NCBI GenBank assembly: GCA_012862575.1
Contig: BLSF01000046.1
Span: 1-64,000 of the forward strand
Source of the DNA: Parietichytrium sp. I65-24A
Lineage: Eukaryota; Sar; Bigyra; Thraustochytrida; Thraustochytriidae
Reading direction: 5' to 3'
Length of the DNA stretch: 64,000 nucleotides
Shown here: one piece after another, positions 28,220 through 46,455 of the stretch
How the letters are laid out: every line of letters begins with the position of its first letter
How positions within the stretch are numbered: the stretch's first letter is position 1
Program-made: the position numbers and the translations under genes
The notes under the pieces: generated by a model
The model's database searches: none
Told to the model about the DNA's origin: nothing
Seen by the model: the letters and a program-made list of their open reading frames with translations, nothing else

Positions 28220-30178
28220 ATGTGGCTCCAGAGTTCAAAAGCTGAGAATAGCCCGACCACGATCCACCAAACGAAGACCTTGAGTGAAAGCAAAGCTTCA
28301 ACAGAGTCAATGGAGAGTGTCTCTTTGTCCTCGTCGGAAGCCGAACTGCAAGCGCAGAAAGTGCAGAAAAGAAATGCAAACGCCGGCCAGGCCAGTGGCT
28401 GGCGTCAAATGCTCGACTTTGACGTCGCCCCAGCACAGAAGGACGTGGGCCAGGCCATCCGCGAAGGCATGATTGGCGATAGAGCGCACTTTCAAACACC
28501 GTTCGGAGAGCGACAGATCGTGTACGCCGACTGGACCGCCAGCGGAAGGGCGCTCACGCAGGTGGAAGAATACGTGCAGAGAAAGGTCTTGCCGTGGTAT
28601 GCCAACTCGCACACTACGACAAGCTGTACCGGCGCACGAACCACTCAGCTGCGTCAAACTGCTCGCGACTACATTCTACAGTGCGTGAACGGGGTCCCAG
28701 AGCAAGACATTGTGTTCTTTGCCGGAAGTGGGTCCACTGCTGCCATCAATAAGCTCGCGCAGCTGGTCAAAGTGGACAACAAGTCCCGGCGCGGCTCGTT
28801 CTTCAAACGGCCAGTCCGGCCACTTGTCATTGTTGGACCTCACGAGCATCACTCCAACTTGCTCCCGTGGCGCGAGTCTGGGGCAAAAGTGGTCATTGTC
28901 TCGGACAACGCCGATGACAACGGGCCAAACATGGCTGAGATCGAACAGCTCTTGAAAAAGCACCACAAGCGAAGGCTGATAGTGGGGACCTTTTCTGCAG
29001 CATCCAACGTGACTGGCGTGATGAGCAACGTGAAAGCGATTGCGAAACTGCTGCACAAGTATGGCGCGCTTGCATTCTTCGACTACGCGTGTGGAGCGCC
29101 GTATCTGAAGATGGACATGAACCCTGGCGAGAAGGACGAGGCGCCGGACGCGATCTTCCTCTCGACCCACAAGTTTATTGGTGGAGTCAACACATCAGGC
29201 GTGCTTGTGTGCAAACGCAGTGTCATTGTGGCAAGCAAGCCGTCGACCCCGAATATTGGCGGCGGCACGGTACTCTGGGTGACGCGAAAGACACACGTCT
29301 ACCTGGACGATGTAATTGAGCGCGAAGAAGGCGGGACCCCGGATATCGTCGGAAATGTTCGCACGGCCCTAATATTTGCAGTGAAAGAGCAATACGGTAT
29401 CGATCGGATTGAGAAGCGTGAGAAAGAGCTGAGCGCACTTATTCGTCGGAGACATGCGCGCGTGCCAAATCTGCACATTCTTGGACCCCCATTGGACAAG
29501 ACCGAGGTACACCGCCTCCCAATCATCTCGTTTCTGGTAAAGCATCCGCAAACCGGCAAGTTCTTGCATCACAACCTAGTTGCAGCATTGTTGAACGACC
29601 TCTACGGAATCAACTCGCGTAGCGGATGCATGTGTGCTGGTCCGATTGCCCAGCGGCTGCTTGGCTTTACGGACGCTGTGGTGAGCAAAGCCAGTGGCTT
29701 GCTCAATAAGGGCGAATTTTACAAGCCCGGGTACACGAGGTTGAGTCTGGCGTACTTTATTTCGGACGAGGAGGCAAATTTCATCTTGGACGCCCTCGAG
29801 CAATTCGCTGAGCATGCTTGGAAGCTGGTTCCTTTGTACAAATTCGACCACAAGACGTCCGAATGGTCTTACTCGCCTCCGAAGGGTGTTGTCGGAAACC
29901 ATCAGACAGTTCCTGACAACGGTAAGCAACTATACTTTCGAACGGTTCTGAAGGCAGCTTTAGACCTTTATAAAGTCGTGGACGAGCTTCTTCGCAACGG
30001 ACAACTCGAGTCGCACGTGCACTCCTCGGTGAGAAGCTTTCCTTCCTTCGTCCTCTATGACCAGGTTTGGTATTTAGTGCCTGAAGACCTTTTCGCAGGC
30101 CCACCTTCGCCAACGTTTGACAACTTTGTGGGCCCGACAAAGTACTGGCCCCGCGTCTTGGCACACAACAAACAGTGA
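28220..30178 (+). CDS. Class-V aminotransferase / cysteine-desulfurase-like protein (copy A)
   Basis: This 652-residue protein has a PLP fold-type I core at ~75-510. The opening is YADWTASGRAL. The cofactor Lys sits in STHKFIGG (K318). FDYACGAP carries the PLP-contacting Asp. SRSGCMCAGP (C470, C472) matches the position of the active-site Cys of SufS-type desulfurases. The N-terminal ~75 residues are Ser/Glu-rich, and a ~150-residue C-terminal extension is absent from bacterial SufS (about 400 residues). The likely chemistry is removing sulfur from cysteine or a related PLP elimination; no targeting peptide is obvious, so a mitochondrial Fe-S role is not supported. The ATG is fixed by comparison with copy D. 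The central ~1.1 kb is almost identical in DNA to copies B and D, which points to recent duplication or gene conversion. Confidence 0.85.
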   Translation: MWLQSSKAENSPTTIHQTKTLSESKASTESMESVSLSSSEAELQAQKVQKRNANAGQASGWRQMLDFDVAPAQKDVGQAIREGMIGDRAHFQTPFGERQIVYADWTASGRALTQVEEYVQRKVLPWYANSHTTTSCTGARTTQLRQTARDYILQCVNGVPEQDIVFFAGSGSTAAINKLAQLVKVDNKSRRGSFFKRPVRPLVIVGPHEHHSNLLPWRESGAKVVIVSDNADDNGPNMAEIEQLLKKHHKRRLIVGTFSAASNVTGVMSNVKAIAKLLHKYGALAFFDYACGAPYLKMDMNPGEKDEAPDAIFLSTHKFIGGVNTSGVLVCKRSVIVASKPSTPNIGGGTVLWVTRKTHVYLDDVIEREEGGTPDIVGNVRTALIFAVKEQYGIDRIEKREKELSALIRRRHARVPNLHILGPPLDKTEVHRLPIISFLVKHPQTGKFLHHNLVAALLNDLYGINSRSGCMCAGPIAQRLLGFTDAVVSKASGLLNKGEFYKPGYTRLSLAYFISDEEANFILDALEQFAEHAWKLVPLYKFDHKTSEWSYSPPKGVVGNHQTVPDNGKQLYFRTVLKAALDLYKVVDELLRNGQLESHVHSSVRSFPSFVLYDQVWYLVPEDLFAGPPSPTFDNFVGPTKYWPRVLAHNKQ

Positions 30179-30237
30179 GGAGCTCGAGCGTCTTTCCGTT
30201 TCCTTGTATGCTAGTCTTTCTAACACTTCTTTCACTT

Positions 30238-30540
30238 CATCAAAGATGAACTAAAGTATCGTGGCCGTGTAAATCCTTTTTCAAGAGTCTCCACAACGAG
30301 CAGTTGCATGCGCCCACATCAACGCGTCTATTGATGGCATCATCAAAGGAGCCCAAAAAGTTGCGCTTCACATGCAATGCTTCCCTGTGGACTACTCCTC
30401 TTGATGGGTGTGTCATACCACTCCATGGACGTCTTTGCCGGCATCCACAATTTGCCTCCGAGCTTGTACATGTCGGCCGCGCCACTTGTGTTTGTTTGAT
30501 GAGTTCGTAGACCGGTTTCTCTACAGATTCCAATGTTTTT
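30238..30540 (+). mobile_element. Retroelement 3' fragment just after aminotransferase A
   Basis: The sequence from tcaaagatgaactaaag onward parallels the C-terminal coding part of the retroelement at 42978-43851, read on that element's coding strand: KDELKHRGRVNP, then VAC.HI.ASIDGIIKGA.K. It then continues into a tail (atccacaatt, tgtcggc.gcgccacttgtg, ctcgtaga, tctcta.aga) shared with 44.3-44.5 kb. It is degenerate and truncated on the 5' side. It lies directly in the 3' flank of gene A. Confidence 0.7.
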
Positions 30541-32480
30541 CAGTCTGAAATGAAAACTTGCTTAAGGCCAACTCAATCAGAACAAGAGCATACAAGAGCG
30601 GCAACCCCAAAGTAGAGAACCCAGTCTTCATGATTTGGCTGGTTCCCAACGCGTTTGGGTTCTCCTCTATGGCCGCACACTACCAGCTAGCTGCATAGCT
30701 CCGCTTTAAGCAAATGTATAAGGAAGTGAGCTTTACTACTCGGTGTAACTATCTACTAGAGAGCACACACCTCGCTTTATTCTCCACGGACAAAGGGTTT
30801 TAAGAGGGGTGTTTTAGCAATTCATTTTGTCTGTTTGCTTCTTTGAATTGTTCCAATTATTCCAACTGTCCGTAACTTTGTCAAAAGTCGCGTCAATGGG
30901 CGTACTAGTACTGATTGCTGTAATCAAAATTCAAAATTCAAATCACAAGCAATCAAATAATTCGCCACGAAAAGACACAACACCAAAATTTCAACTCGAC
31001 TTGGCTTGTGAGAGGAGACGAAAACCATGTGAGCTTTTAAAGTTTAAGATATGTGTTCGTTATTACCGCACACTACGACGTGGCGGGGGGGTGGGGCGAC
31101 TGTTACAAGAACGGATATATAGCAAGTTAGCACGTTGGGAGATGTTGGGAGAGTTGGGTGATGGCGCGCGTGGTGGCGCACCCTCTCTTTTATTCAAAGT
31201 GTTGGCCGACGCGCAAGGTTTCAATTAGAATTGATTATGTAGATTTATTCACAGTCATTTCATTTCGTATTTATTTATTTATTTTCCAAGAGCAGTTGAC
31301 TCATTACTCAATTCGCAAGTTCAAAACTCAAAAGTGCAGAATACATATCATTCGTTTTAGTCATTGAAGTGAGAGTGTGCTGCTTGCTTCTCGTTGGACC
31401 GCAGAGTTCAGAATGAATGAGCGAATGGATAGATGGGTGTTCAGGGCTCGCATTTCAAGTCCCGCACGACTTCTTTCCGTTGAGCCATGCTGAGCCACAG
31501 TAATGGCATTGAAAATCGACGAGTCTTGAGAGTTTGCCTTGCTTCCGTGCTCGTGTTCATGTAGCGCCGTGCATTTGGAGCGCAGTTTTAGCCCAAACTT
31601 CGCGAAAGCCCTCTGAACATCTGCAAATAAGTTCATTAACTGTACATAGTACACAACTTGGGTACTAGAGTACAAGGTACTAGAACTGCCCTGCACATCT
31701 GCACATGGCGGTTGACGTGAGGCTTCACTGCAAGTTTTGAAGCCTTGAAAGCTTGTAGCGACTGCCACGGCCTCGCTCGATGCAACGAATTTGCTGCCGG
31801 TCTAGTTTCCACTGCGAGCTGAGAGTTAGTTGCACGTGACACCCACACCCTCACAGAGCAGAGGTCATAGAGAGCTTGCAAGCGAGGGAAAGAGGACTAA
31901 CTGAGTTCGTAGCTGGTCGATGGCTGAGTGGATAGATGGATGGGTGGATCCTCGCGTTGTCAGTATTCACGAAGTAAGAGATCGCCTGGGTATAATTCAA
32001 TGTCAACAGAGCGCGTAGCCATGGCAGTGAAAGAGTGTAGAATACTTGCAGTCAGAAACACATCCAGGGAGGGAGGGTTCAGAGAAAGGACACGGCCCAC
32101 TGCTTTCAAACTAGCCAGTTGCCAAGCGCATCGCACTGCAAAAGTGGTTGCTCTCTCTCTCTCTCTCTCTCTCTCTTCGAAAATAGAGCTCTTTCAAGAG
32201 CCGATTGAGCAGATTGGCGCCCAAAGTAAGGGGAAGTCTTAGACTACGAAGTCACCTGCAAACGAGACACACCATGGGCCCAATCACTATCGGTTTCGAC
32301 ACCGGTACTCATACAAGCCACGGGAAGAGAGCAGAATATCTTCTACTTTGCACCATTTCCTGAATGCAAAATAGGCATCCACAGACCCTGTTTGGCCACG
32401 CCGAAGCCGCAACTCAAACCCAAAACAAAATATTGACCCCAGCAAGCAGACGCGATCTCTGACAACTAAATAAACAAACC
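30541..32480. other. Spacer, upstream region of aminotransferase B
   Basis: No gene is seen. Near 31059-31140 a block (ttacaagaacgga, agttagcacg) recurs from 26016-26090, so this appears to be a diverged copy of the aminotransferase upstream region. A (CT)n run occupies about 32153-32176. Confidence 0.45.
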
Positions 32481-34556
32481 ATGACGCGAACCGCGGTCCC
32501 AGCCTTGAGGCAACACGCAGAAATGGTGTTTCGCAAGCCTGAAAATGAGCAAGATGATCTTTTATCACGGAGCTCCACAGATACCGATTCACAGTCGGTA
32601 GGCTCGGAAGACTTGGACGGCAGCCTTTACATGAGTTATTCTAGTGGGCCTCTTGCAGAGGAGAACGAAGATAATGCTGCGTCAGATACTGTGATCGAAG
32701 GTGCACGCCCAGCTGAGCCAGTTTCCAACAACTCTCTCGAGCGACAAATCGAGAGCAATAACTGCCTCAATCACAAGACCCCTTCGTGGAGACAGATGCT
32801 CGACTTTGACGTCGCCCCAGCACAGAATGACGTGGGCCAGGCTATCCGCGAAGGTGTGATTGGCGATAGAGCGCACTTTCAAACACCGTTCGGAGAGCGA
32901 CAGATCGTGTACGCCGACTGGACCGCCAGCGGAAGGGCGCTCACGCAGGTGGAAGAATACGTGCAGAGAAAGGTCTTGCCGTGGTATGCCAACTCGCACA
33001 CTACGACAAGCTGTACCGGCGCACGAACCACTCAGCTGCGTCAAACTGCTCGCGACTACATTCTACAGTGCGTGAACGGGGTCCCAGAGCAAGACATTGT
33101 GTTCTTTGCCGGAAGTGGGTCCACTGCTGCCATCAATAAGCTCGCGCAGCTGGTCAAAGTGGACAACAAGTCCCGGCGCGGCTCGTTCTTCAAACGGCCA
33201 GTCCGGCCACTTGTCATTGTTGGACCTCACGAGCATCACTCCAACTTGCTCCCGTGGCGCGAGTCTGGGGCAAAAGTGGTCATTGTCTCGGACAACGCCG
33301 ATGACAACGGGCCAAACATGGCTGAGATCGAACAGCTCTTGAAAAAGCACCACAAGCGAAGGCTGATAGTGGGGACCTTTTCTGCAGCATCTAATGTGAC
33401 TGGCGTGATGAGCAACGTGAAAGCGATTGCGAAACTGCTGCACAAGTATGGCGCGCTTGCATTCTTCGACTACGCGTGTGGAGCGCCGTATCTGAAGATG
33501 GACATGAACCCTGGCGAGAAGGACGAGGCGCCGGACGCGATCTTCCTCTCGACCCACAAGTTTATTGGTGGAGTGAACACATCAGGCGTGCTGGTGTGCA
33601 AACGCAGTGTCATTGTGGCAAGCAAGCCGTCGACCCCGAATATTGGCGGCGGCACGGTGCTCTGGGTGACGCGAAAGACACACGTCTACCTGGACGATGT
33701 AATTGAGCGCGAAGAAGGCGGGACCCCGGATATCGTCGGAAATATTCGCACCGGTCTTACGTTTGCGGTGAAAGAGCAATACGGTATCGATCGGATTGAG
33801 AAGCGTGAGAAAGAGCTGAGCGCACTTATTCGTCAGAGACATGCGCGCATGCCAAATCTGCACATTCTTGGGCCACCATTGGACAAGACCGAGGTACACC
33901 GCCTCCCAATCATCTCGTTTCTGGTAAGGCATCCGCAAACCAGGAAATTTTTGCACCACACCTTTGTATCCACGCTGTTGAACGACCTCTACGGAATCAA
34001 CTCGCGTAGCGGATGCATGTGTGCTGGACCGATCGCCCAGCGTCTCCTTGGTCTTTCCGACGCCTATGTCGCGAAAGTAGCTCCTCTGATCCAGAAGGAA
34101 GGCGAATTTTACAAGCCCGGGTACACGAGGTTGAGTCTGGCGTACTTTATTTCGGACGAGGAGGCGAATTTCATCTTGGACGCCCTTGAGCAAGTTGCCG
34201 AGCATGCTTGGAAGCTGGTTCCTTTGTACAGATTTCACCATTCTTCAGGCCAGTGGCTGTTTTCTAAGCCTGCTGGATTCCAGCTTGATCAGTCTTGTCT
34301 CCGTTTTACGCACAATAATTACTTTCAAGTTGTTCTGAAAGATGCCGCGGAGGTATACAAAGCCGCCGACGGCTACTTAAACGACGGGAGTTTCAAAGCT
34401 CACGTGGCTTCTGGCCAAGCTAGCCTGCCAGCGAACCACCATGCGTCTCTGATCTGCTTTGTGACGCCGGAAGACATCGTTGCGAGCGCGAAAGAGTCTT
34501 TGTACGACAACTTTCTTGATCCTCGCCGCTATTGGCCCAGCGTTGTGGCGCAGTAA
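32481..34556 (+). CDS. Class-V aminotransferase / cysteine-desulfurase-like protein (copy B)
   Basis: This 691-residue paralogue of the genes at 28220 and 37047 has the same PLP core: STHKFIGG with the cofactor Lys, and SRSGCMCAGP with the candidate catalytic Cys. Its first ~110 residues (acidic, Ser-rich, MTRTAVPALRQ...) are unrelated to those of copies A and D. Its last ~150 residues are only moderately similar. In contrast, the DNA from the RQMLDFDVAPAQ segment to the IRTGL.FAVKEQYG segment differs from copy A at only a handful of positions. A conserved block between diverged ends is the signature of gene conversion. The different N-terminus may change location or partners. The ATG is preceded by accaa-cc context and no earlier start is in frame. 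Confidence 0.85.
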   Translation: MTRTAVPALRQHAEMVFRKPENEQDDLLSRSSTDTDSQSVGSEDLDGSLYMSYSSGPLAEENEDNAASDTVIEGARPAEPVSNNSLERQIESNNCLNHKTPSWRQMLDFDVAPAQNDVGQAIREGVIGDRAHFQTPFGERQIVYADWTASGRALTQVEEYVQRKVLPWYANSHTTTSCTGARTTQLRQTARDYILQCVNGVPEQDIVFFAGSGSTAAINKLAQLVKVDNKSRRGSFFKRPVRPLVIVGPHEHHSNLLPWRESGAKVVIVSDNADDNGPNMAEIEQLLKKHHKRRLIVGTFSAASNVTGVMSNVKAIAKLLHKYGALAFFDYACGAPYLKMDMNPGEKDEAPDAIFLSTHKFIGGVNTSGVLVCKRSVIVASKPSTPNIGGGTVLWVTRKTHVYLDDVIEREEGGTPDIVGNIRTGLTFAVKEQYGIDRIEKREKELSALIRQRHARMPNLHILGPPLDKTEVHRLPIISFLVRHPQTRKFLHHTFVSTLLNDLYGINSRSGCMCAGPIAQRLLGLSDAYVAKVAPLIQKEGEFYKPGYTRLSLAYFISDEEANFILDALEQVAEHAWKLVPLYRFHHSSGQWLFSKPAGFQLDQSCLRFTHNNYFQVVLKDAAEVYKAADGYLNDGSFKAHVASGQASLPANHHASLICFVTPEDIVASAKESLYDNFLDPRRYWPSVVAQ

Positions 34557-35510: not shown

Positions 35511-37046
35511 TTCTTCAGGAGAAAAGCGCCGCTGATCTTTGATATTTGAGCTTTGATCTTGCTCAGACTTTGCAACTTTGCATGCTCATCTTCTTCTGTA
35601 CCGCAGCAGACGTCTCGGTTACAAGATCGTCGAAATCCACGGAGATTCACACGCAGACGTCTCTCCCGCGTTGGCGACAACCTACTCTTAGCTACTCAGT
35701 AGTTGACTTTATATCTCGCTAATAGCCAGTAATGCTCTTTCTATTCATCCGAGCCAAGTCCTCCGAGGGCGTAAGGGTTGTCAACGTTAACAATAAGACT
35801 ACGGGTCATCGGAGCGCAAATCTCCGGCGGAAAAGCTCCGGGGGGAAAACAACTACCAAGATGATAGTCACTCTTAGGTATTGGTGAGGAGGAGACGAAG
35901 TCGGCTTTTGCTGAACATTTTTGCGGGTCCCTTATTAGTGTCCTACTTATTACCTTAGTACAACTGGGTCGGGTCGTAAGCTTGCTACTGTGGGGTAGAT
36001 CACACTCCTAGGGATGGCCCTATGAAGCCTCGGAGAAGAGAGAGAGAAGGAGAGACGGGCCGGTGGGTTAGTGATAAGGGTAGAGCACAGTTACTCGGCG
36101 AGGACCTGCATTCAGCGCAAGTTTGCAATGAATTTTCTCATCCGTTCATTCTCATGCAATAAAAAAAAAGAAATAAATAAATTAACAGAATTCAGTAAAA
36201 AGAAAACGAAAGCGCTGTAAAATGAATTGATTTATTCCAAGACAAGCAAAGGTGAGTTGTGGTGCCAATTTCAAAGCATCTCTAACTCTTCGTCGCTGAA
36301 GCACTGACGGCACTGTTGTCCACATTTTCCACATTGTCCACGTGCTCCGAACTGATTCTCGCGCGGGATGTGTCACATGCATTCACATATTCACAAGTTC
36401 TGCCTGTCAGTGACTGCGCCAAACTATAAGACTTACAAACTATGCTTCGCTCACTCCGCTCAAAATTTCGCTCGTTCCTAGGGTTCCTAGCTAGATGTTC
36501 CTAGAGTTTCTGGCGAACACTTGAGACACTTGAGCACCTTTCCTCCGAGAGTGACTTTCTTTGCGAATGGGAAGCGCAGTGAATGCGACTAAGTACCGTC
36601 GGGAATTCCTGTGTGTGTAACTATGTGTAACTTGCAGCTTGACTCGCTGACTCTGGCTCCGCTGGATGGTGTGTTTTGACTGAACAATGCCGTATGACGT
36701 ATGGAAGACCACGTGTTGGTTTCACAGGACCACTCTTGGGATCTTGAGCCCGTACACGACAAAGCGCCAGATCCCTTTCATTCAACAAGCCCAGGAAAAC
36801 AAAAACAAAAACGTAACAGTAAGCTCAAATTTCGATAGTGCTGGTGCAAAGAACAGAATTGCACACTTCACTTCCCTCTTCGGGTTGACTGGCTCTCTAA
36901 AGTCAATAATAGATTGGTAGAGCTCCCAGTCTCTTTCAAAACGAGGAACTCTCTTTGGCGAAACTGACGGGCAGGAGCTCAAAGTATCCTTCTCGACAAG
37001 CTTGAGGCGAAGGGATCGTGTCAATACCCAAACTAAATATCGCGCG

Positions 37047-39005
37047 ATGTGGCACCAGAGCTTGAAAGCTGAGAATCGGTCGGCCACGATCCACCAAAAG
37101 AAGGTCCTGATTGAAAACAAAGCTTCGACAGAGTCAATGGAGAGTGTCTCTTTGTCCTCGTCGGAAGCCGAACTGCAAGCGCAGAAAGTGCAGAAAAGAA
37201 ATGTAAACGCCGGCCAGGCCAGTGGCTGGCGTCAAATGCTCGACTTTGACGTCGCCCCAGCACAGAAGGACGTGGGCCAGGCCATCCGCGAAGGCATGGT
37301 TGGCGATAGAGCGCACTTTCAAACACCGTTCGGAGAGCGACAGATCGTGTACGCCGACTGGACCGCCAGCGGAAGGGCGCTCACGCAGGTGGAAGAATAC
37401 GTGCAGAGAAAGGTCTTGCCGTGGTATGCCAACTCGCACACTACGACAAGCTGTACCGGCGCACGAACCACTCAGCTGCGTCAAACTGCTCGCGACTACA
37501 TTCTGCAGTGCGTGAACGGGGTCCCAGAGCAAGACATCGTGTTCTTTGCCGGAAGTGGGTGTACCGCTGCCATCAATAAGCTCGCGCAGCTGGTCAAAGT
37601 GGACAACAAGTCCCGGCGCGGCTCGTTCTTCAAACGGCCAGTCCGGCCACTTGTCATTGTTGGACCTCACGAGCATCACTCCAACTTGCTCCCGTGGCGC
37701 GAGTCTGGGGCAAAAGTGGTCGTTGTCTCGGACAACGCCGATGACAACGGGCCAAACATGGCCGAGATCGAACAGCTCTTGAAAAAGCACCACAAGCGAA
37801 GGCTGATAGTGGGGACCTTTTCTGCGGCATCCAATGTGACTGGCGTGATGAGCAACGTGAAAGCGATTGCGAAACTGCTGCACAAGTATGGCGCGCTTGC
37901 ATTCTTCGACTACGCGTGTGGAGCGCCGTATCTGAAGATGGACATGAACCCTGGCGAGAAGGACGAGGCGCCGGACGCGATCTTCCTCTCGACCCACAAG
38001 TTTATTGGTGGAGTGAACACATCAGGCGTGCTGGTGTGCAAACGCAATGTCATTGTGGCAAGCAAGCCGTCGACCCCGAATATTGGCGGCGGCACGGTGC
38101 TCTGGGTGACGCGAAAGACACACATCTACTTGGACGATGTAATTGAGCGCGAAGAAGGCGGGACCCCGGATATCGTCGGAAATATTCGCACCGGTCTTAC
38201 GTTTGCGGTGAAAGAGCAATACGGTATCGATCGGATTGAGAAGCGTGAGAAAGAGTTGAGCGCACTTATTCGTCAGAGACATGCGCGCATGCCAAATCTG
38301 CACATTCTTGGGCCCCCATTGGACAAGACCGAGGTACACCGCCTCCCAATCATCTCGTTTCTGGTAAGGCATCCGCAAACCGGCAAGTTCTTGCATCACA
38401 ATCTCGTCTCAGCATTGTTGAACGACCTCTACGGAATCAACTCGCGTAGCGGATGCATGTGTGCTGGACCAATTGCTCAGCGGCTGCTTGGCTTCTCTGA
38501 CGCTGTGGTAGACAAGCTCAGTGGCATGCTGAGGAAGGGCGAATTTTACAAGCCCGGGTACACGAGGTTGAGTCTGGCGTACTTTATTTCGGACGAGGAG
38601 GCAAATTTCATCTTGGACGCCCTCGAGCAATTCGCTGAGCATGCTTGGAAGCTGGTTCCTTTGTACAAATTCGACCACAAGACGTCCCAGTGGTCTTACT
38701 CGCCTCCGAAGGGTTTTGCCGAAAACCATTACACCGCACTCGGCAACGGCAAGCACATGTACTTTAGAGCAGCCTTGAAGGCAGCTTTTGATCTATACGA
38801 ATCCGCGAGCGAGCTCCTTCGTGATGGACAGCTCAAGTCACACGTGTACTCCTCGGCCAAAAGCTTACCTGCCTCCGCCCTCACGAATCAGGTTTGGTTC
38901 CTGGTCCCTGAGGATCTCTTCGCAGGTCCATCTTCTTCAAAGTTTGCCAACTTTGTGGACCCGACAAAGTACTGGCCCCGCGTCTTGGCGCACAACAAAC
39001 AGTGA
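37047..39005 (+). CDS. Class-V aminotransferase / cysteine-desulfurase-like protein (copy D)
   Basis: The ATG at 37047 gives 652 residues. The frame is open to 37002, but the start is fixed because the sequence up to and including ATG-TGG is shared with copy A. Domain order and key residues are as in copy A: YADWTASGRAL, the FDYACGAP Asp, the STHKFIGG Lys, and SRSGCMCAGP. N-terminal ESMESVSLSSSEAELQAQ is identical to copy A, while the last ~130 residues have drifted. In the core it carries both A-like and B-like variants (IRTGLTFAVKEQ and RQRHARM as in B, but HHNL rather than the B version). Such a mosaic fits repeated gene conversion within the array. The 3' flank (gagc.tgagcgtctttccgtttccttgtatgcta) is also shared with copy A. 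Confidence 0.85.
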   Translation: MWHQSLKAENRSATIHQKKVLIENKASTESMESVSLSSSEAELQAQKVQKRNVNAGQASGWRQMLDFDVAPAQKDVGQAIREGMVGDRAHFQTPFGERQIVYADWTASGRALTQVEEYVQRKVLPWYANSHTTTSCTGARTTQLRQTARDYILQCVNGVPEQDIVFFAGSGCTAAINKLAQLVKVDNKSRRGSFFKRPVRPLVIVGPHEHHSNLLPWRESGAKVVVVSDNADDNGPNMAEIEQLLKKHHKRRLIVGTFSAASNVTGVMSNVKAIAKLLHKYGALAFFDYACGAPYLKMDMNPGEKDEAPDAIFLSTHKFIGGVNTSGVLVCKRNVIVASKPSTPNIGGGTVLWVTRKTHIYLDDVIEREEGGTPDIVGNIRTGLTFAVKEQYGIDRIEKREKELSALIRQRHARMPNLHILGPPLDKTEVHRLPIISFLVRHPQTGKFLHHNLVSALLNDLYGINSRSGCMCAGPIAQRLLGFSDAVVDKLSGMLRKGEFYKPGYTRLSLAYFISDEEANFILDALEQFAEHAWKLVPLYKFDHKTSQWSYSPPKGFAENHYTALGNGKHMYFRAALKAAFDLYESASELLRDGQLKSHVYSSAKSLPASALTNQVWFLVPEDLFAGPSSSKFANFVDPTKYWPRVLAHNKQ

Positions 39006-39274
39006 CGAGCTTGAGCGTCTTTCCGTTTCCTTGTATGCTAGGCTCTTCATTCAACGCATCGAAGTCTGAACTTTTATAATTTATAACTTTCACGATGGAA
39101 GGAACAATTGAAGAACAATGTAATTGTAAACTTTTTAGTCAGCGAAAACCGAGAACAACTCGTCTTATCTGATCTCATCTGAATCGAACCACTTCTGGTT
39201 GCATCGATACTTTCTCATTCTCATCTCATTCTCACTTCCAACAGGAGAAAAAAAAAGAGGAAAAAAAAGAAAAA
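39006..39274. other. Short spacer between aminotransferase D and 5S copy 1
   Basis: The first ~50 bp are the shared 3' flank of the aminotransferase genes. The last ~30 bp are an A-rich tract that forms the pol III stop for the minus-strand 5S gene. Confidence 0.5.
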
Positions 39275-39388
39275 GCTCGCCACCAGGGCTTCCCACCTAG
39301 TCCCCTACGGTAGTACTGACCTGGCCAGATCGGGCTTGACTTCGGAGTTCGGATGAGTTCCGGTATAGGACCGATTGTAGGAGCGAGC
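39275..39388 (-). rRNA. 5S rRNA: 5S rRNA, copy 1 (full length)
   Basis: Read on the minus strand, the 114 nt start GCTCGC and end GCGAGC, a perfect helix I closing pair. The interior has the eukaryotic 5S pattern CCGGAACTCATCCGAACTCCGAAGTCAAG, then GCCAGGTCAGTACTACCGTAGGGG, then TAGGTGGGAAGCCCTGG. These correspond to the A-box / intermediate element / C-box internal promoter region and the conserved GGTCAGTACT loop. A T-rich run (A-rich on plus, 39249-39274) follows the 3' end and would stop RNA polymerase III. This is the only copy with an intact helix I and no indel, so it is the best candidate for the active gene. Confidence 0.85.
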
Positions 39389-40157
39389 TAAGCTGAAATA
39401 TCGGCAGCTGCAGGACATATTTATAAACAAGTCACTTGATCCCATTAGCAGCACATAAATTTCTCTTAGTGGTGCTCTATCCTATTCAATCCACGATACC
39501 ATTGTTCGTAGTACTGGACATTGGTAGTGATCAGATACTCGATTGGGTAAGGGTCCAAAAGATACTGTTTGGATCTGTTTGGGATCTTTCTCCTTCAACT
39601 CCTTCAATCAAAACATTCAACCCAATGAATTCACATGTCAATCAATCAATGAGACTGGCAACGATGGATTGAAACGATGGTCGACGGCACATGGCGATTG
39701 ACTCTCATGCAACATGCGAGCGCTGCTGCCCATCCAATGCAATGCAATGCAATGCCACGCAATCCACAGAACGACCCGAGTCGGAGTGACCCACTCTGGC
39801 GAGGATGGAATGGATACTCAGTACTCTGTTTGCGCTTCGTCCAGCTTCACTTGTTCAGAGCCCTGGCAAAGCCCTATCGTCCGGTAGAGCTGAGCTGAGC
39901 TTCCGCCATTTGTCTTTCTCTCTTGTCTCCTTCAAGTTCAAGTTTCTCTCAACTGCTCTAAGTGCTCTCTCAAATCCTTTCTTGGTGAGGTCCTATCATA
40001 TCACATGATCAGCAGTCCCCAAACGCCTATCGCTTCGAAGTGTCGGTGAGCCACGCCGAAGCGGAACGGAGTTGTCGTAATCGCTCATACTGACGCTGAT
40101 ACAGATATTGTAAGCCAGACTCGTGCGCGGAGGAGTCGCAGTCGCAGGGCAAGGAGA
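39389..40157. other. Spacer: 5S upstream flank and carboxypeptidase promoter
   Basis: The first ~150 bp are the conserved 5S upstream flank, also seen at 44109-44255 and partly at 43862-43910. The last ~60 bp (gactcgtgcgcggaggagtcgcagtcgcagggca) are the carboxypeptidase leader shared with copy 2. It is divergent between a pol III and a pol II gene. Confidence 0.5.
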
Positions 40158-41848
40158 ATGTGGAGCAAACGGGCAGCGGTGGCTGCTGGGGCGGCGGTGT
40201 TGCTGTTGACGGTCGGCGCGAACGGAGAGTGCCATGATGACTATCACAGCCAGAATGCGTGCAACAGCGCGAGCGGATGCGTGTGGTGCCTCTCGCAGAC
40301 GATTCCAAGTGCGTGCTACACGACCGACCAGGCCAAGCAGCTGCCCGAGGCAGTCTTCGATTGCACCAAGAAGATGCACTTTACTGCCGAGCAGAGGGAT
40401 GCGCGAGGTGAGCTGGAGGTGACGATGGAGCACAACCCGCAGGGACGCGGCCAACTGCGATCCGAGCTGGAGTCGCTCGGCTCCGGACTCGGCGAGGAGG
40501 CTCTCTGCGACGCGGGAGTCAAGCAGCTCGCAGGGTACTTTCGCCTGCACGAGCAGAACAAGCACTACTTTTACTGGTTTTTCGAGTCGCGCAACGATCC
40601 GGCCAACGACCCGGTCATTCTCTGGATGACCGGCGGGCCTGGCTGTTCCAGCGGCATTGCGCTCTTCGCCGAGAACGGACCTTGTTCGGTGAACGAGGAC
40701 GGGACAGACACCATTCCAAATCCATTTAGCTGGAACTCCAACGCATCCATCATGTACATCGACCAGCCGGCCGGAACTGGGTTCTCCTATGGAACCCACG
40801 ACACCGACGAAGTCGGCGTCTCCACGGACATGTACCAGTTCCTCACGGAGTTTTTTGCAAAGAATCCGCAGTATGCTAAGCAGGACTTTTACATTGTAAG
40901 TTTTTGGATCGTGCCACTCGCATTTGTTTCTGGAAGTATCTCCTTCTGCTGTGCAATAGAGCGCGTTCTAACTCTACCTCCTCTTCGGTGATGCTTCTTC
41001 GCTCCCAGTTTGGTGAGAGCTATGCTGGCCACTACGTCCCAGCCACCGCGCACCGCATTTGGCAGAATCAGAAGGACGCCGCAGATACGGAGACCAAGAT
41101 CAACCTCAAGGGCATCGCGATTGGCAATGGCCTCACCGACGTTGTCACTCAAATCCAGTACTACGCAGATATGGCGTACAACAGCGGCACCACCCCTGCG
41201 CGCGTGAGCAAGGCGACTTACTTTTACATGAAGAACGTCGCCACCCCAGCCGCAGTAGCTGCCGCCAAGCTCTGCAACGATAGCGGGTCCTGGTTCGCAT
41301 GTGTCGCTGCAGAGGAGGTTTACGCTCTTGGGCTCATCATGCCATACGCGGTAGGTGGATGGAACCAATACGATGCACGCGAAAAGTGCAAGGTGCCGCC
41401 GATGTGCTACGACTTTACCAACGTTGATAAATTTCTGAACAGTAAGCGTGTGCAGGAGTACCTTGGCGTGTCCAAGCACTGGGCGTCTTGTGACCAATCC
41501 GTGCATTTGGCGCTCATGGGGGACTTTGCCAAGAACTACCAGCAGCAGATTCCTGATCTTCTCGGCGCGGGCATCAAGACTCTCATCTATGCTGGAGACG
41601 CGGACTACATTTGCAATTGGCTCGGCAACAAGGCTTGGGTGCTCAAGTTGGACTGGCCAGGCAAGGACGCTATCAACGCAGCTACTGACGAGCCATTCAT
41701 GGTGGATGGCGTCGAGGCTGGTAAGATCCGCTCTGCAAATGGGCTCTCTTTTCTCCAGGTGTACCACGCCTCGCACATGGCTCCAATGTCCAAGCCCAAG
41801 GAGACTTTGGACATGGTGCGCCGCTTCACCGGCGTCTCCAGCGAATAG
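40158..41848 (+). CDS. Serine carboxypeptidase (S10 family), copy 1, one intron
   Basis: Two exons (40158-40895 and 41009-41848) flank a 113-nt phase-0 intron (GTAAGT...CCCAG) and encode 525 residues. Residues 1-23 are a signal peptide ([12 protein letters not shown]), followed by a Cys-rich pro-region. Catalytic motifs are [10 protein letters not shown] (oxyanion hole), FGESYAGHY (nucleophile Ser, split from FYI by the intron), [15 protein letters not shown] (Asp), and [11 protein letters not shown] (His). The family removes C-terminal residues from peptides at acid pH in vacuoles or lysosomes or after secretion. The protein is about as long as cathepsin A and yeast carboxypeptidase Y. It is half of a tandem pair with the gene at 44765. 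Splicing is needed: exon 1 runs into stop codons soon after the intron start. Confidence 0.92.
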
Positions 41849-42227
41849 CTTGAGCACGTGGCGGTCACTGCTACTACCTCTGCGGCAAAATCATCCAAAG
41901 TTTGGCAAGAGCGAAAATCGAATCATTCTATATATCCCATTCCATTTGTTGTTTGTCGTTCTCCGAATCAAGTACTAGCTTTAGATGACCCCGGTACACG
42001 CCAGCATCGTATGGCTGGTCTGTCAGCATATCATGTCACGAAGCCGCAAGCCAGCCTTTCCACCCCTGTCGAAGTGAACGTGATTCTGTCAAATCAAATG
42101 TATTGGTTCACCCACAGTCAGCTGAGAAGGAAGACAAGTCCATAAAAACAAGAGCACCCAATCCAACCCATCGTAGCCCACTCCCCGACAAAATCCGGAG
42201 TCTCACACGACATCAACAAACCCAGAC

Positions 42228-42288
42228 GTGGTTCTGAAGGCAGCTTTTGACCTGTACAAATTCGCGCAAGAGCTCCTTCGTTATTCGT
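42228..42288 (+). pseudogene. Short fragment of an aminotransferase C-terminus
   Basis: This reads as VVLKAAFDLYKFAQELLRY. The matching parts of copies A and D read TVLKAALDLYKVVDELLRN and AALKAAFDLYESASELLRD. Only ~60 bp remain, 12 kb from the nearest full gene in copy A terms and 3 kb past copy D. It shows that the aminotransferase family once extended, or was copied, into the 5S-carboxypeptidase block. Confidence 0.65.
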
Positions 42289-42299
42289 AAGCCTGCCAG

Positions 42300-42565
42300 G
42301 TGCAAGGCACTACCCAAGAGCCTATGCAAGGTGCCACTCATCGGCCCATGCAAGGCAATAGTCAAGAGCTTATACAAAGCAATAGTCAGGAGCGTACACA
42401 AGGCACTAGTCAGGAGCGTATACAAAGCAATAGTCATGAGCGTATACAAGGCACTAGTCATGAGCGTAAACAATGCACTAGTCAGGAGCTCATACAAAGC
42501 AGTATACATGGCACTAATCGGGAGCCTATACAAGGTGTTAACCAAGAGCCTATGCACCAATTAAG
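42300..42565 (+). repeat. 24-bp minisatellite, about ten diverged units
   Basis: The unit is approximately aaggcactagtcaggagcgtatac. Being a multiple of three, it leaves reading frames open, but codons are not conserved in a protein-like way. Its last unit (caagagcctatgcaccaa) is a dispersed module also seen near 9770 and 15455, so the minisatellite may have grown by expansion of that module. Confidence 0.75.
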
Positions 42566-42867
42566 TCTGTCTTAGGGAAGCGCTAGTTGACCTAGTTGAC
42601 ATAGTTGACCTGTTCTCAGGCTGGAAACAGAACGAGTCAGTCAGCCTGTAGGAGGAAGGAGGAAGGAGGAAGGAGGAAGGAGGAAGGAGGCAGGCAGGCT
42701 CAGTAGGCGCAGGCTCACTCATTGGCCGCGGAGGCAGGCGCAAGTCTCAAGCGCATGAAGGAGACCGCCGAAGGCAGGCGAACTTTGGCTTGCTAGGGGA
42801 AAAAGAGGCGCGCACTTTGCTTGTTATAGGAAAAAGAAAAAAACCAACGGAAAAAATTGCGAAAAAA

Positions 42868-42977
42868 GCTCGCCACCAGGGCTTCCCACCTAGTCCCCTA
42901 CGGTAGTACTGACCTGGCCTGTAATGGCTTAACTTCGGAGTTCGGATGAGTTCCGGTGTATGACATGAAGTGTGAGC
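42868..42977 (-). rRNA. 5S rRNA: 5S rRNA, copy 2, interrupted by a retroelement
   Basis: The minus-strand sequence from GCTCACACTTCATGTCATACACCGG to GCGAGC covers nucleotides ~5 to the 3' end of a 5S gene. The conserved GGTCAGTACT and GTGGGAAGCCC segments are intact and a T6 stop follows. Nucleotides 1-14 lie 874 bp away at 43852-43865, with the retroelement in between. This copy cannot give a normal 5S transcript. The internal pol III promoter is still present, so transcription of the 3' part or of flanking DNA is conceivable. Confidence 0.75.
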
Positions 42978-43851
42978 CAACTCACGAGTATAGCCATCCG
43001 CGGGAGTAGCCCACATGGAGCCTTTGCACCGCGATGCAATTTTTTTAGCTCCTTTGATGATGCCGTCAATTGAGGCCTTGATGTGAACGCACGCAACGGT
43101 TTGCTTCATATAGGAGATTTCTAAGGAAGGATTTACACGACCACGATGCTTGAGTTCATCTTTGACCAAGTCAAAGAAGCGTTCAGCTTCAGGGCCAAAA
43201 CCTCCATGGAGATACCTCGCCATAGGAACCAAGAGAGCATGGGGGATTTTCGCTATTGCAGCATCGTATTTTTGGTGCCTGTCTCTCGCGCGGTCGGCTG
43301 CGGGGCCATCTGGCGAAGGCTGGTGGTGGAGCGTCCGAGTGTTGGCCGACGTAGAGTGTGTCACGGTGGAGAAGTCAACGAATGTGACCTGCTGCGGTTT
43401 GTGGTGCCAACCAGAGATCTTGAGATCGGCGCGGCGGTTGACTGAGCGGATACCCTCGGCACAACGCAAATGCGGTTCGATGGCCGTCTTGAGGTCCGGC
43501 ATTGCATACAAGAGAGCAGACCTCAAAGCGTGAACCGATGCAGTGTGAGCGCCCATGTGTTGGCCCCGGATACAAGAGAGGAGATGATACCCGAGACACT
43601 TGTTAAACGAGGTGTTCACTAGAGGCGTCTTACAACTGCAGGTGTGGACAAGGGGAACCTCAAGATGGAGTTTTGGAAGCCCAAGGTAAAGGCGTAAACC
43701 GTTGACCATGTGATGGTTCTCCAGTGTCAGTTTCGAGGAAAGTGGCAGCGCACGGAGAAAATCAGATGCGGACTTTTTTGTGCCCAATTTAGCCGAGGCA
43801 TGGACGAGCAACACCTTTGATTTGTAGGAAGGAGCATGTCAGAGCTGCGAT
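42978..43851 (-). mobile_element. REL-ENDO non-LTR retrotransposon fragment inserted in 5S
   Basis: The minus-strand frame (open from about 43838; conventional ATG lost) is the C-terminal end of a non-LTR retrotransposon protein. It has a C-x-C...H-x4-C knuckle (CSCKTP...YHLLSC), then the restriction-enzyme-like endonuclease pattern RRADLKISGW...VTFVDFSTV (usual PD...D, here AD...D). The typical tail follows (RHQKY, GGFGPEAERFFDLVKDEL). Elements with this endonuclease (R2, R4/Dong, NeSL, CRE groups) are often site-specific. The fragment is bounded by a 10-bp direct repeat, GCTCACACTT on the minus strand, at 42968-42977 and 43852-43861, which is part of the 5S gene. It is truncated at both ends: reverse transcriptase is missing, and the tail seen at 30.5 and 44.45 kb is also missing. 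The frame runs on into 5S. Confidence 0.8.
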
Positions 43852-43865
43852 AAGTGTGAGCGGGC
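43852..43865 (-). rRNA. 5S rRNA: First 14 nt of 5S copy 2, stranded by the insertion
   Basis: GCCCGCTCACACTT on the minus strand matches nucleotides 1-14 of copy 3 (GCCCGCCCACACTT). It is preceded by the same upstream flank (accacctaatcag.taa). Its last ten bases are the target-site duplication. Confidence 0.7.
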
Positions 43866-44000
43866 TTAACTGATTAGGTGGTAACTGCAGGCGTAATTAT
43901 AACCAAGTTGCCTGAAACCCAGGAGCAATTGCAGGACGCACTTTCGCTTGTCAGGAACGAAAAAAAAGCGGATTGGACAAAATGGAATTCGGAACAAAAA

Positions 44001-44108
44001 GCTCGCCACCAGGGCTTCCCACCTAGTCCCCTACGGTAGTACTGACCTGGCCTGTCATGCTTCGGAGTTCGGATGAGTTCCGGTGTACGACATGAAGTGT
44101 GGGCGGGC
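44001..44108 (-). rRNA. 5S rRNA: 5S rRNA, copy 3 (diverged, probably defective)
   Basis: This 108-nt copy has the same interior and 3' end as copy 1. It lacks six bases between CGAAG and the GGCCAGGTCAGT segment (GCATGACAGG here, against AAGCCCGATCTGG in copy 1). The 5' end GCCCGC pairs with the 3' GCGAGC with one mismatch. A T5 run follows. The deletion falls in the internal promoter / loop A-helix region, so I consider it a pseudogene, although an expressed variant cannot be excluded. Confidence 0.65.
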
Positions 44109-44296
44109 TTAGCTGATTAGGTGGTAATTGTAGGCCGTATTTAATACCAACCACCCGATCCCATTAGCAGTCACATAAACTTCTCTTATTGGTGCTATAT
44201 TCTATCAATCAACGATACCATAATTATTAGTACTGGCATGTAGGTCCCACTTTCGCTACTTTTTTTATTCATTCACACTGTCAACATCTGTCAACA

Positions 44297-44500
44297 ATGA
44301 TCGAGATTGAAACAAGAGCTAAAAAGATTCCACTTCGGTGCAAAGGCTCCATGTGGCTACTCCCGTTGATGGCTATACCCGCGAGATGGATGTTTTCACT
44401 GACATCCACAATTGGCCTACGGGCTTGCACATGTCGGCTGCGCCACTTGTGCTTGTTTGAAGGGCTCGTAGAACAGTCTCTCTATAGATACATTTTTGAG
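44297..44500 (+). mobile_element. Retroelement 3' fragment upstream of carboxypeptidase 2
   Basis: gagctaaaaag, cggtgcaaaggctccatgtgg, ctactcccg.tgatggctatacc match the end of the element at 42978-43851, here in the opposite orientation. The tail (atccacaatt, gtcggctgcgccacttgtgcttgtttgaagggctcgtaga) matches 30.4-30.54 kb and 9.8 kb. It is degenerate and non-coding. Confidence 0.7.
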
Positions 44501-44575
44501 CAAATTTTCAAAACACATCCTCATCGAGTTACCATACTCATTCTCGGTCTCATCCTCATCCTCATCCTCGTACTA

Positions 44576-44729
44576 TGACATACTCAGACTCAGACTCAGA
44601 CTCAGACTCAGACTCAGACTCAGACTCAGACTCAGACTCAGACTCAGACTCAGACTCAGACTCAGACTCAGACTCAGACTCAGACTCAGACTCAGACTCA
44701 GACTCAGACTCAGACTCAGACTCAGACTC
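44576..44729 (+). repeat. GACTCA hexanucleotide microsatellite in the carboxypeptidase 2 leader
   Basis: About 25 perfect GACTCA units end ~35 bp before the ATG of the gene at 44765. At the same place copy 1 has only the single remnant ccagactcgtgcgcgg, so the tract expanded after duplication. It opens Ser-Asp and Leu-Ser frames, which are not genes. Confidence 0.85.
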
Positions 44730-44764
44730 GTGCGCGGAGGAGTCGCAGTCGCAGGGCAGGGAGA

Positions 44765-46455
44765 ATGTGGAGCAAACGGGCAGCGGTGGCTGCTGCGGCG
44801 GCGGTGTTGCTGTTGACGGTCGGCGCGAACGGAGAGTGCCATGATGACTATCACAGCCAGAATGCGTGCAACAGCGCGAGCGGATGCGTGTGGTGCCTCT
44901 CGCAGACGATTCCAAGTGCGTGCTACACGACCGACCAGGCCAAGCAGCTGCCCGAGGCAGTCTTCGATTGCACCAAGAAGATGCACTTTACTGCCGAGCA
45001 GAGGGATGCGCGAGGTGAGCTGGAGGTGACGATGGAGCACAACCCGCAGGGACGCGGCCAACTGCGATCCGAGCTGGAGTCGCTCGGCTCCGGACTCGGC
45101 GAGGAGGCTCTCTGCGACGCGGGAGTCAAGCAGCTCGCAGGGTACTTTCGCCTGCACGAGCAGAACAAGCACTACTTTTACTGGTTTTTCGAGTCGCGCA
45201 ACGACCCGGCCAACGACCCGGTTATCATTTGGATGACCGGCGGGCCTGGCTGTTCCAGCAGCATTGCGCTCTTCGCCGAGAACGGACCTTGTTCGGTGAA
45301 CGATGACGGAACAGACACCATTCCAAACCCATTTAGCTGGAATTCCAACGCATCCATCATGTACATCGACCAGCCGGCCGGAGCTGGATTCTCCTATGGA
45401 ACCCATGACACCGACGAAGTCGGCGTCTCCACGGACATGTACCAGTTCCTCACGGAGTTTTTTGCAAAGAATCCGCAGTATGCTAAGCAGGACTTTTACA
45501 TTGTAAGTTTTTGGATCGTGCCACTCGCATTTGTTTTTGGAAGTATCTCCTTCTGCTGTACAGCAAAGAGCCATCTAACTCTACCTTCTCTTTGGTGATG
45601 CTTCTTCGCTCCCAGTTTGGAGAGAGCTATGCTGGCCACTACGTCCCAACCACCGCGCACCGCATTTGGCAGAATCAGAAGGACGCCGCAGATACGGAGA
45701 CCAAGATCAACCTCAAGGGCATCGCGATTGGCAATGGCCTCACCGACGTTGTCACTCAAATCCAGTACTACGCAGATATGGCGTACAACAGCGGCACCAC
45801 CCCTGCGCGCGTGAGCAAGGCGACTTACCTTTACATGAAGAACGTCGCCACCCCAGCCGCAGTAGCTGCCGTCAAGCTGTGCAACGATGGCGGTTCCTGG
45901 TTCGCATGTGTCGCTGCAGAGGAGGTTTACGCTCTTGGGCTCATCACGCCATTCGCAGCCGGGGGATGGAACCAATACGACGCACGCGAAAAGTGCAAGG
46001 TGCCGCCGATGTGCTACGACTTTACCAACGTTGGCAAGTTTCTGAACAGCAAGCGTGTGAAGGAGTATCTCGGCGTGTCCAAGCACTGGACAACTTGTAA
46101 CCAGTCCGTGCATTTGGCACTTTGGGGGGAAGTCGTCAAGAACTACCAGCAGCAGATTCCCGATCTTCTCGGCGCGGGCATCAAGACTCTCATCTATGCT
46201 GGAGATGCAGACTACAGTTGTAATTGGCTCGGCAACAAGGCATGGGTGCTCAAGTTGGACTGGCCAGGCAAGGACGCTATCAACGCAGCTACTGACGAGC
46301 CATTCATGGTGGATGGCGTCGAGGCTGGCAAGATCCGCTCGGCAAACGGTCTTTCTTTTCTCCAAGTATACAACGCCTCGCACATGGCTCCAATGTCCAA
46401 GCCCAAGGAGACTCTGGACATGGTGCGCCGCTTCACCGGCGTCTCCAGCGAATAG
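44765..46455 (+). CDS. Serine carboxypeptidase (S10 family), copy 2, one intron
   Basis: This is the tandem duplicate of the gene at 40158, with the same architecture: exons 44765-45502 and 45616-46455, a 113-nt phase-0 intron, and 525 residues. The signal peptide, [34 protein letters not shown] and [11 protein letters not shown] are present, so the catalytic Ser, Asp and His are kept. Exon 1 is nearly identical to copy 1; exon 2 has more replacements (for example [10 protein letters not shown] in place of MGDFAKNYQQ). Both introns keep the donor, acceptor and length but differ inside. The promoter side differs strongly because of the GACTCA tract and the retroelement piece, so expression may have diverged. 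Function as for copy 1. Confidence 0.92.

What the first reader, a model, noticed from the sequence alone, without database searches (positions are those of the whole stretch)
42868..43865. A REL-ENDO retrotransposon fragment inserted in a 5S rRNA gene with a 10-bp target duplication
On the minus strand, 5S nucleotides 1-14 (43865-43852), the retroelement (43851-42978) and 5S nucleotides ~5 to the end (42977-42868) follow one another. The ten bases GCTCACACTT are present on both sides. Site-specific non-LTR elements with restriction-like endonucleases are best known from large-subunit rDNA, spliced-leader and other repeated RNA genes. A REL-ENDO element hitting a protist 5S gene at about position 14 would be a notable target. 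Structure is seen directly; specificity is inference from one insertion.
Basis: partly seen in the sequence, partly recalled or inferred. Interest (0 to 1): 0.85.

Follow-up and report, generated by a model that had tools for sequence, protein, structure and literature searches.

The report
Retrotransposon piece inside 5S rRNA gene
A piece of an R2-like jumping gene sits inside a 5S ribosomal RNA gene of a protist, and several other copies of the same jumping gene in that genome sit in 5S genes at almost exactly this spot, which suggests an apparently unrecorded 5S-seeking member of a known class.

Summary
At 43851-42978 (-) an 874-base retroelement fragment interrupts a 5S gene after nt 16 (A1 = first base of AAGCCCG); nt 7-16 (GCTCACACTT) is repeated beyond it, and a neighbouring 5S gene shows the uninterrupted site. 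The insert encodes, stop-free, the C-terminal zinc knuckle and restriction-like endonuclease of a non-LTR element; its modelled fold matches the R2 endonuclease best. But the insert is internal: it lacks the element's 3' end as well as its 5' end and lies in 5S sense orientation, so it is not a normal target-primed insertion. 5S specificity of the family shows elsewhere: 8 of 71 examined 3' ends lie antisense in 5S, all joined at nt 15; 2 lie in sense orientation; 61 are outside recognisable 5S. The antisense copies are absent from a 38-row clade of the tail tree (0 of 38 against 8 of 33). Best reading: a restriction-endonuclease LINE, part of which targets 5S at nt 15; the window copy is an aberrant insertion at that site. 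Clade, host species and direction of change (the tree is unrooted) are not settled.

The parts
43852..43867 (-). 5S rRNA gene nt 1-16, upstream side of the insertion; nt 7-16 (43861-43852) is the first copy of the 10-bp repeat
   Evidence: sequence; family D7; alignment with the uninterrupted neighbour gene
42978..43851 (-). internal fragment of a restriction-endonuclease-type non-LTR retrotransposon, in 5S sense orientation, lacking both its 5' and 3' ends
   Evidence: other copies continue past both boundaries
42978..43838 (-). stop-free frame of 287 codons encoding the C-terminal zinc knuckle and restriction-like endonuclease
   Evidence: 287 residues, no stop
43572..43640 (-). zinc-knuckle residues C-x-C ... 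H-x3-C (CSC at 43640-43632, YHLLSC at 43589-43572)
   Evidence: invariant C67 C69 H85 C89 among four sequences; coordinates; low model confidence here
43371..43436 (-). PD-(D/E)xK-like endonuclease core (RRADL ... VTFVDF)
   Evidence: invariant D138, D155; coordinates; fold
42865..42977 (-). 5S rRNA gene nt 7-119, downstream side; nt 7-16 (42977-42968) is the second copy of the 10-bp repeat
43998..44110 (-). neighbouring 5S gene, uninterrupted at this place (paralogous empty site)

Best explanation
The insert is a fragment of a non-LTR retrotransposon with an R2-type restriction-like endonuclease. Part of the family targets the 5S rRNA gene: the endonuclease nicks the sense strand after nt 15, the freed 3' end primes reverse transcription of the element's RNA from its 3' end, and the copy, usually 5'-truncated, ends up antisense to the 5S gene (shown: the uniform junctions; inferred: the reaction). 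The window copy marks the same cut (sense strand open after nt 16, one base off). Here the second strand was cut ten bases away and the gap was filled with an internal stretch of element sequence in the opposite orientation, giving the 10-bp repeat (shown: structure; inferred: that the family's own enzyme made the cut, and that either internal priming from the other strand or capture of cDNA during repair filled it). Most copies, above all a 38-row clade, lie outside 5S; that this is a later loss of the target is inferred, since the tree is unrooted.
Against: 61 of 71 3' ends are outside recognisable 5S. The window copy lacks the 3' end from which target-primed synthesis normally starts. Two 3' sides are weak alone: C14 (10 of 15) and C4 (under 10 of 15); both rest on their 5' sides. 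In C150 and C30 roughly 100 bases between the tail and the 5S piece were not matched by the element queries. C14 and C94 start close together in the element (577 and 584). Bias: the C129 and C23 tails came only from loci fetched in the 5S search, C4:883 and C151 were first seen there, and the query carried about 11 bases of 5S. The C1 reverse transcriptase alone finds no PDB chain and falls 1 bit short of Pfam's cut-off (27.5 bits), so the R2 hit leans on its distant relatives. Model confidence is modest (mean pLDDT 56). The 33/38 split was chosen after seeing the tree.
Confidence: 0.7

Rival explanations
1. The family has no 5S specificity. It inserts at many sites, and 5S loci (dispersed, repeated, tolerant of damage) simply keep more copies.
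For: 61 of 71 3' ends are elsewhere. Several copies lie in 5S spacers or upstream of intact 5S genes rather than at nt 15: C77, C45, C151, C35.
Against: Retention does not explain one nucleotide and one orientation in eight copies, nor 3 of 41 ends in 0.01% of the genome. No shared alternative site was seen at the other copies, but the Rfam scans behind this also missed 5S fragments known to be in four of the scanned loci, so they are insensitive to fragments.
Confidence: 0.13
2. The window insert was not made by this element's enzyme: a double-strand break in the 5S gene, with ten-base 3' overhangs filled in, was repaired by capturing a piece of element DNA or cDNA.
For: Both ends are truncated and the 3' end is missing; by eye no clear microhomology beyond about one base; a 10-bp repeat fits filled-in staggered ends.
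Against: The break falls within one base of the cut used by eight other copies, a coincidence unless the enzyme made it. Repair after an enzyme-made cut is already part of the best explanation.
Confidence: 0.3
3. A 5S-derived SINE (SINE3-like): a 5S head fused to a LINE tail, so that 5S next to the element is part of the mobile unit.
For: 5S sequence adjoins element tails at several loci; such SINEs are known in vertebrates (PMC3747384, passages seen).
Against: A SINE has a 5S head upstream of a LINE tail in the same orientation. Here 5S lies on both sides, mostly antisense, with the 5S upstream region conserved in the window.
Confidence: 0.02
4. Assembly chimera.
For: The assembly is scaffolded and has joins near some copies (an N 64 bases or so from the C129 junction; the C1 copy holds an N and runs to a scaffold end).
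Against: No N in 42000-45000; an exact 10-bp repeat and several loci in the same register are not expected from misassembly.
Confidence: 0.03

Closest known systems
R2 (28S rDNA-specific, RLE-encoding non-LTR retrotransposons of animals)
   Same: Endonuclease fold of the window fragment matches R2 best; the reverse transcriptase profile hits R2 first; one sharp 3' junction with variable 5' ends; target is an rRNA gene
   Different: Target is 5S, mostly antisense; host is a protist; 12-16% identity to R2 chains in the structural alignments
Utopia (U2 snRNA-specific RLE elements, incl. oomycetes; PMC4640811: passages and one section read)
   Same: RLE-encoding, present in stramenopiles, targets a multicopy small-RNA gene, precise 3' and variable 5' junctions, some families with weakened specificity; reptile families make 20-bp target repeats
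   Different: Target is 5S; no U2 found at 53 loci scanned, with a scan insensitive to fragments; N-terminal domains not available to compare; no tree
Mutsu (zebrafish 5S-specific non-LTR element; named in PMC11202950 and PMC3706591, passages seen)
   Same: Non-LTR retrotransposon that inserts in 5S rRNA genes
   Different: Mutsu is about 5.5 kb with two ORFs (PMC11202950); that it belongs to the Tx1 clade with an apurinic-type endonuclease is my recollection; here the endonuclease is restriction-like
Dada-5S (fish DNA transposon; PMC8869645, passages seen)
   Same: Targets 5S rRNA genes
   Different: DNA transposon, no reverse transcriptase

Membership tests
RLE-encoding non-LTR retrotransposons (R2/R4/NeSL/CRE/HERO group) | reverse transcriptase of non-LTR type | tested here: met
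   C1 copy of the same family: RVT_1 E 1.4e-6, though 1 bit under the cut-off; profile with P0001-P0004 hits R2 then other LINE-type RTs; the single sequence finds no PDB chain. The window fragment itself has no RT
RLE-encoding non-LTR retrotransposons (R2/R4/NeSL/CRE/HERO group) | C-terminal zinc knuckle and PD-(D/E)xK restriction-like endonuclease | tested here: met
RLE-encoding non-LTR retrotransposons (R2/R4/NeSL/CRE/HERO group) | copies share a 3' end and vary at the 5' end | tested here: met
   most of the 71 tails share the end type, with differing 5' starts; a few tails are broken; the window copy itself is an exception
R2 clade | insertion in 28S rRNA genes | tested here: inconclusive
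   5S is the target seen; no 28S hit at 53 loci scanned with Rfam at gathering scores, a scan that misses fragments
R2 clade | RT grouping with R2 in a tree | not tested
   no named NeSL, R4, CRE or HERO reference sequences at hand
Utopia | junction with U2 snRNA genes | tested here: inconclusive
   no U2 at 53 loci, but the same scan missed 5S fragments known to be in L020, L064, L092 and L104
5S-specific element (by behaviour) | many independent copies join 5S at the same nucleotide | tested here: met
   8 antisense copies at nt 15, but 61 of 71 3' ends are elsewhere
Mutsu (5S-specific, zebrafish) | apurinic-type endonuclease (recalled) | tested here: not met
   the fragment models as a restriction-like endonuclease; the N-terminal part of the element was not available

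The most novel reading that the evidence does not exclude
The first RLE-encoding LINE known to target the 5S rRNA gene, in a labyrinthulomycete-like protist: one part of the family inserts antisense at nt 15, another clade occasionally inserts at about the same place in the opposite orientation (C40, C129, and probably the window copy), and the rest lie elsewhere. Within one genome this would catch a site-specific retrotransposon reversing its orientation and losing, or gaining, its target.
Probability: 0.4. Interest if true: 0.75.

Novelty: new variant of a known kind. Interest (0 to 1): 0.6.

Why it matters
RLE elements are reported for 28S, 18S, U2, tRNA-Pro, spliced-leader and microsatellite targets (PMC4640811, PMC5035012; passages); in the papers I saw, insertion inside 5S genes is reported for Mutsu and for Dada-5S. 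An RLE-based route to 5S would show convergence on one target, as Keno and Utopia did on U2 (PMC4640811). Copies in 5S and outside it, in one small genome, make the gain or loss of specificity testable. R2-type enzymes are also being developed for gene insertion (PMC12222951, abstract start seen), so a naturally different target is of practical interest.

Tried and rejected
A tree of the reverse transcriptase against R2, R4, NeSL and CRE was not built: the protein searches gave 4 and 9 distant relatives, only one of them named. Host: the best named relatives of a window ABC transporter are Mucochytrium quahogii (56%) and Hondaea fermentalgiana (55%), behind an unnamed one at 59%, so a labyrinthulomycete is an inference from one protein; an 18S search did not complete. 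A PDB profile search with A3 was spoilt by an AAA domain in P0007. Pfam alone did not see the endonuclease. The reverse transcriptase as a single sequence found no PDB chain. Hidden other targets: Rfam on 53 loci and ARAGORN on 56 loci gave only two tRNA-Ser genes on either side of the C16 copy, but Rfam at gathering scores also missed 5S fragments known to be in four of these loci, so this says little. A 5S-derived SINE was rejected on the two-sided antisense junctions. Print: the searches showed no RLE element of 5S genes; the lists were capped (15 of 21, 12 of 2,603, 15 of 1,135), most papers were seen only as listings, the paper on Mutsu types in zebrafish is not held, and Repbase was not available.

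Full report
What is there. On the minus strand of the window a 5S rRNA gene begins at 43867 (AAGCCCGCTCACACTT, nt 1-16), is interrupted by 874 bases (43851-42978) and resumes at nt 7 (GCTCACACTTCATG...), so that nt 7-16 stands on both sides. Rfam finds the downstream part as 5S (42865-42983, 75.2 bits) and two further 5S genes in the window, at 39272-39390 and 43998-44110. The neighbour at 44110-43998 is uninterrupted at this place. With the insert and one repeat copy removed, the occupied gene aligns to it across the junction and for about 40 bases upstream of the gene, so this is a 5S gene that was hit, not a stray 5S fragment (family D7). There are no N bases in 42000-45000.

The insert is internal. 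Thirty-nine DNA matches exist in the 42.5-Mb genome (a lower bound). Copies that pass the insert's last base go on for about 120 bases, through the end of the frame, to a shared type of 3' end...CTCGTAGATC..CTCTATAGATAAATTTT..TTTTC. The window insert stops short of this, and its 5' edge also lies inside the frame. Its last 240 bases, which C1 does not cover, are nearest C77 (90%), C11 (89%), C91 and C19 (88%).

Is there 5S specificity? I examined 71 element 3' ends with flanks. Eight lie antisense in 5S: C54, C150, C30, C4:883, C14, C143:1166, C143:1820 and C43:254. Written in 5S orientation, all eight left flanks end, by eye, at the same base, nt 15, where the element starts. For C143:1166 the 29-base flank GTACCCCTACTCCCAAGCCCGCTCAGACT is the same as that of the uninterrupted 5S gene on C45, where an N stands just before it. 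Five of the eight (C54, C150, C30, C4, C14) have 5S on the other side as well; in C150 and C30 roughly 100 bases in between were not matched by the element queries. Two more copies, not among the 71 because their tail is broken or missing (C94; C143:3933, with only a 17-base BLAST match), show 5S on their 5' side. Two copies with a 3' end lie in sense orientation: C40, with 5S on both sides, and C129, with 5S on the 3' side.

How much is chance? In a test without gaps, 6 of 71 3' flanks match the 15-base target at 12 or more positions, with 0.14 expected from 100 shuffles of each flank. C14 (10 of 15) and C4 (under 10) are not significant by their 3' side alone, and at 10 or more matches 14 were seen against 10.6 expected, so weak matches mean nothing. 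5S places found by DNA search (34) make up about 0.01% of the genome; 10 of 71 ends there has a binomial probability of 3e-29. That set is biased: the C129 and C23 tails came only from loci fetched in the 5S search, C4:883 and C151 were first seen there, and the query carried about 11 bases of 5S. Nor are the 71 all independent: C10 (two), C22 with C82, C107 (two) and C119 (two) share their flanks. In the set, whose query holds no 5S, 3 of 41 ends (C40, C143:1735, C14) join 5S against 0.004 expected. 5' starts mostly differ (415 in C54, 577 in C14, 584 in C94, 541 in C143:3933, tail only in C4, C30, C150), which speaks for separate insertions, though C14 and C94 are close.

The other side of the ledger. 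Sixty-one of 71 3' ends are not in recognisable 5S. Scans of 53 loci with Rfam and of 56 loci for tRNAs showed only two tRNA-Ser genes around C16; these scans also missed 5S fragments known to be in L020, L064, L092 and L104, so they cannot exclude fragments of U2 or other RNA genes. A tree of the tails puts the eight antisense 5S copies among 33 rows outside, and none among 38 rows inside, one clade (94/95 support; Fisher p 0.0013). The split was chosen after seeing the tree, many inner branches are weak, and the tree is unrooted: that the 38-row clade is the younger one is my inference from its smaller divergence. The two sense copies are in that clade, C40 at its base and C129 in the subgroup with C11, C77 and C91, which are also among the window copy's nearest matches.

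How it most likely works. For the antisense copies the sense strand of the 5S gene is nicked after nt 15, its 3' end primes reverse transcription of the element RNA from its 3' end, and 5' junctions fall at various places, by eye from about nt 11 to past nt 22. This resembles R2 and Utopia (for Utopia: PMC4640811, section on insertion sites read). In the window copy the sense strand is open one base further on (after nt 16), and the duplication of nt 7-16 implies that the other strand was cut ten bases upstream, leaving 3' overhangs. The filler is sense-oriented and lacks the element's 3' end, so synthesis did not start in the normal way. Either the other strand's 3' end primed inside the RNA, or the cut was repaired by capturing a cDNA or DNA piece. 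That the family's own enzyme made the cut is inferred from the shared position. No activity was measured.

Known or new? The papers seen report insertion in 5S genes for the zebrafish element Mutsu (PMC11202950, PMC3706591; passages) and for the DNA transposon Dada-5S (PMC8869645; passages); elements inserting near 5S genes are also known (TRE5, Ty1, Tj1; PMC5911963, passages). RLE elements are reported for 28S, 18S, U2, tRNA-Pro, spliced-leader and microsatellite targets (PMC4640811, PMC5035012; passages). My searches showed no RLE element of 5S genes (three of the lists capped), but Repbase and subscription journals were out of reach. I rate this a new variant of a known kind: same machinery class, new target, partial specificity, clade unsettled. 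The host is probably a labyrinthulomycete, from the nearest named relatives of one window protein.

Noticed in passing
window 9822-9886 (+), 30222-30528 (+), 44316-44508 (+): Three more pieces of the same element family lie in the window; none has 5S at its 3' end. The one at 44316-44508 is about 200 bases upstream of the 5S gene at 44110, on the opposite strand.
   Followed up: partly
window 42865-42983: The truncated 5S gene keeps nt 7-119, hence the internal promoter region (recalled), and the insert's last bases (GAGTTG) stand in for nt 1-6; Rfam still scores it 75 bits, so it may still be transcribed.
   Followed up: no
C77:115786-116502, C45:208943-211429, C151:20769-21153, C35:180109-180613: Element pieces also sit in 5S spacers or just upstream of 5S genes, not at nt 15.
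   Followed up: partly
C150:2040-2160 and C143 near 1450-1546: The stretch between element tail and 5S in C150 resembles, by eye, the 5' flank of a C143 copy (GAAGCCACGAAGTG...AACAAACCCTATCGGAA), perhaps a second repeat.
   Followed up: no
L009 (C16) 1220-1303 and 1972-2053: The C16 copy of the element lies between two tRNA-Ser genes.
   Followed up: no
window 40050-41848 and 44579-46455: Two similar copies of a serine-carboxypeptidase-like gene (name recalled) flank the 5S pair; the second starts behind an array of CAGACT units at about 44580-44740.
   Followed up: no
window 28166-30178, 32463-34556, 36921-39005: Three very similar long ORFs of one family (recalled as class-V aminotransferase-like) in tandem.
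   Followed up: no
G000:C11:65169-65615: A second reverse transcriptase in the genome, RVT_1 over the cut-off in a 964-codon open frame.
   Followed up: no
5S genes of G000: The 5S genes are dispersed and, by eye, differ most in their first 25 or so bases, so the retrotransposon's target region is among the fastest-changing parts of the gene.
   Followed up: no
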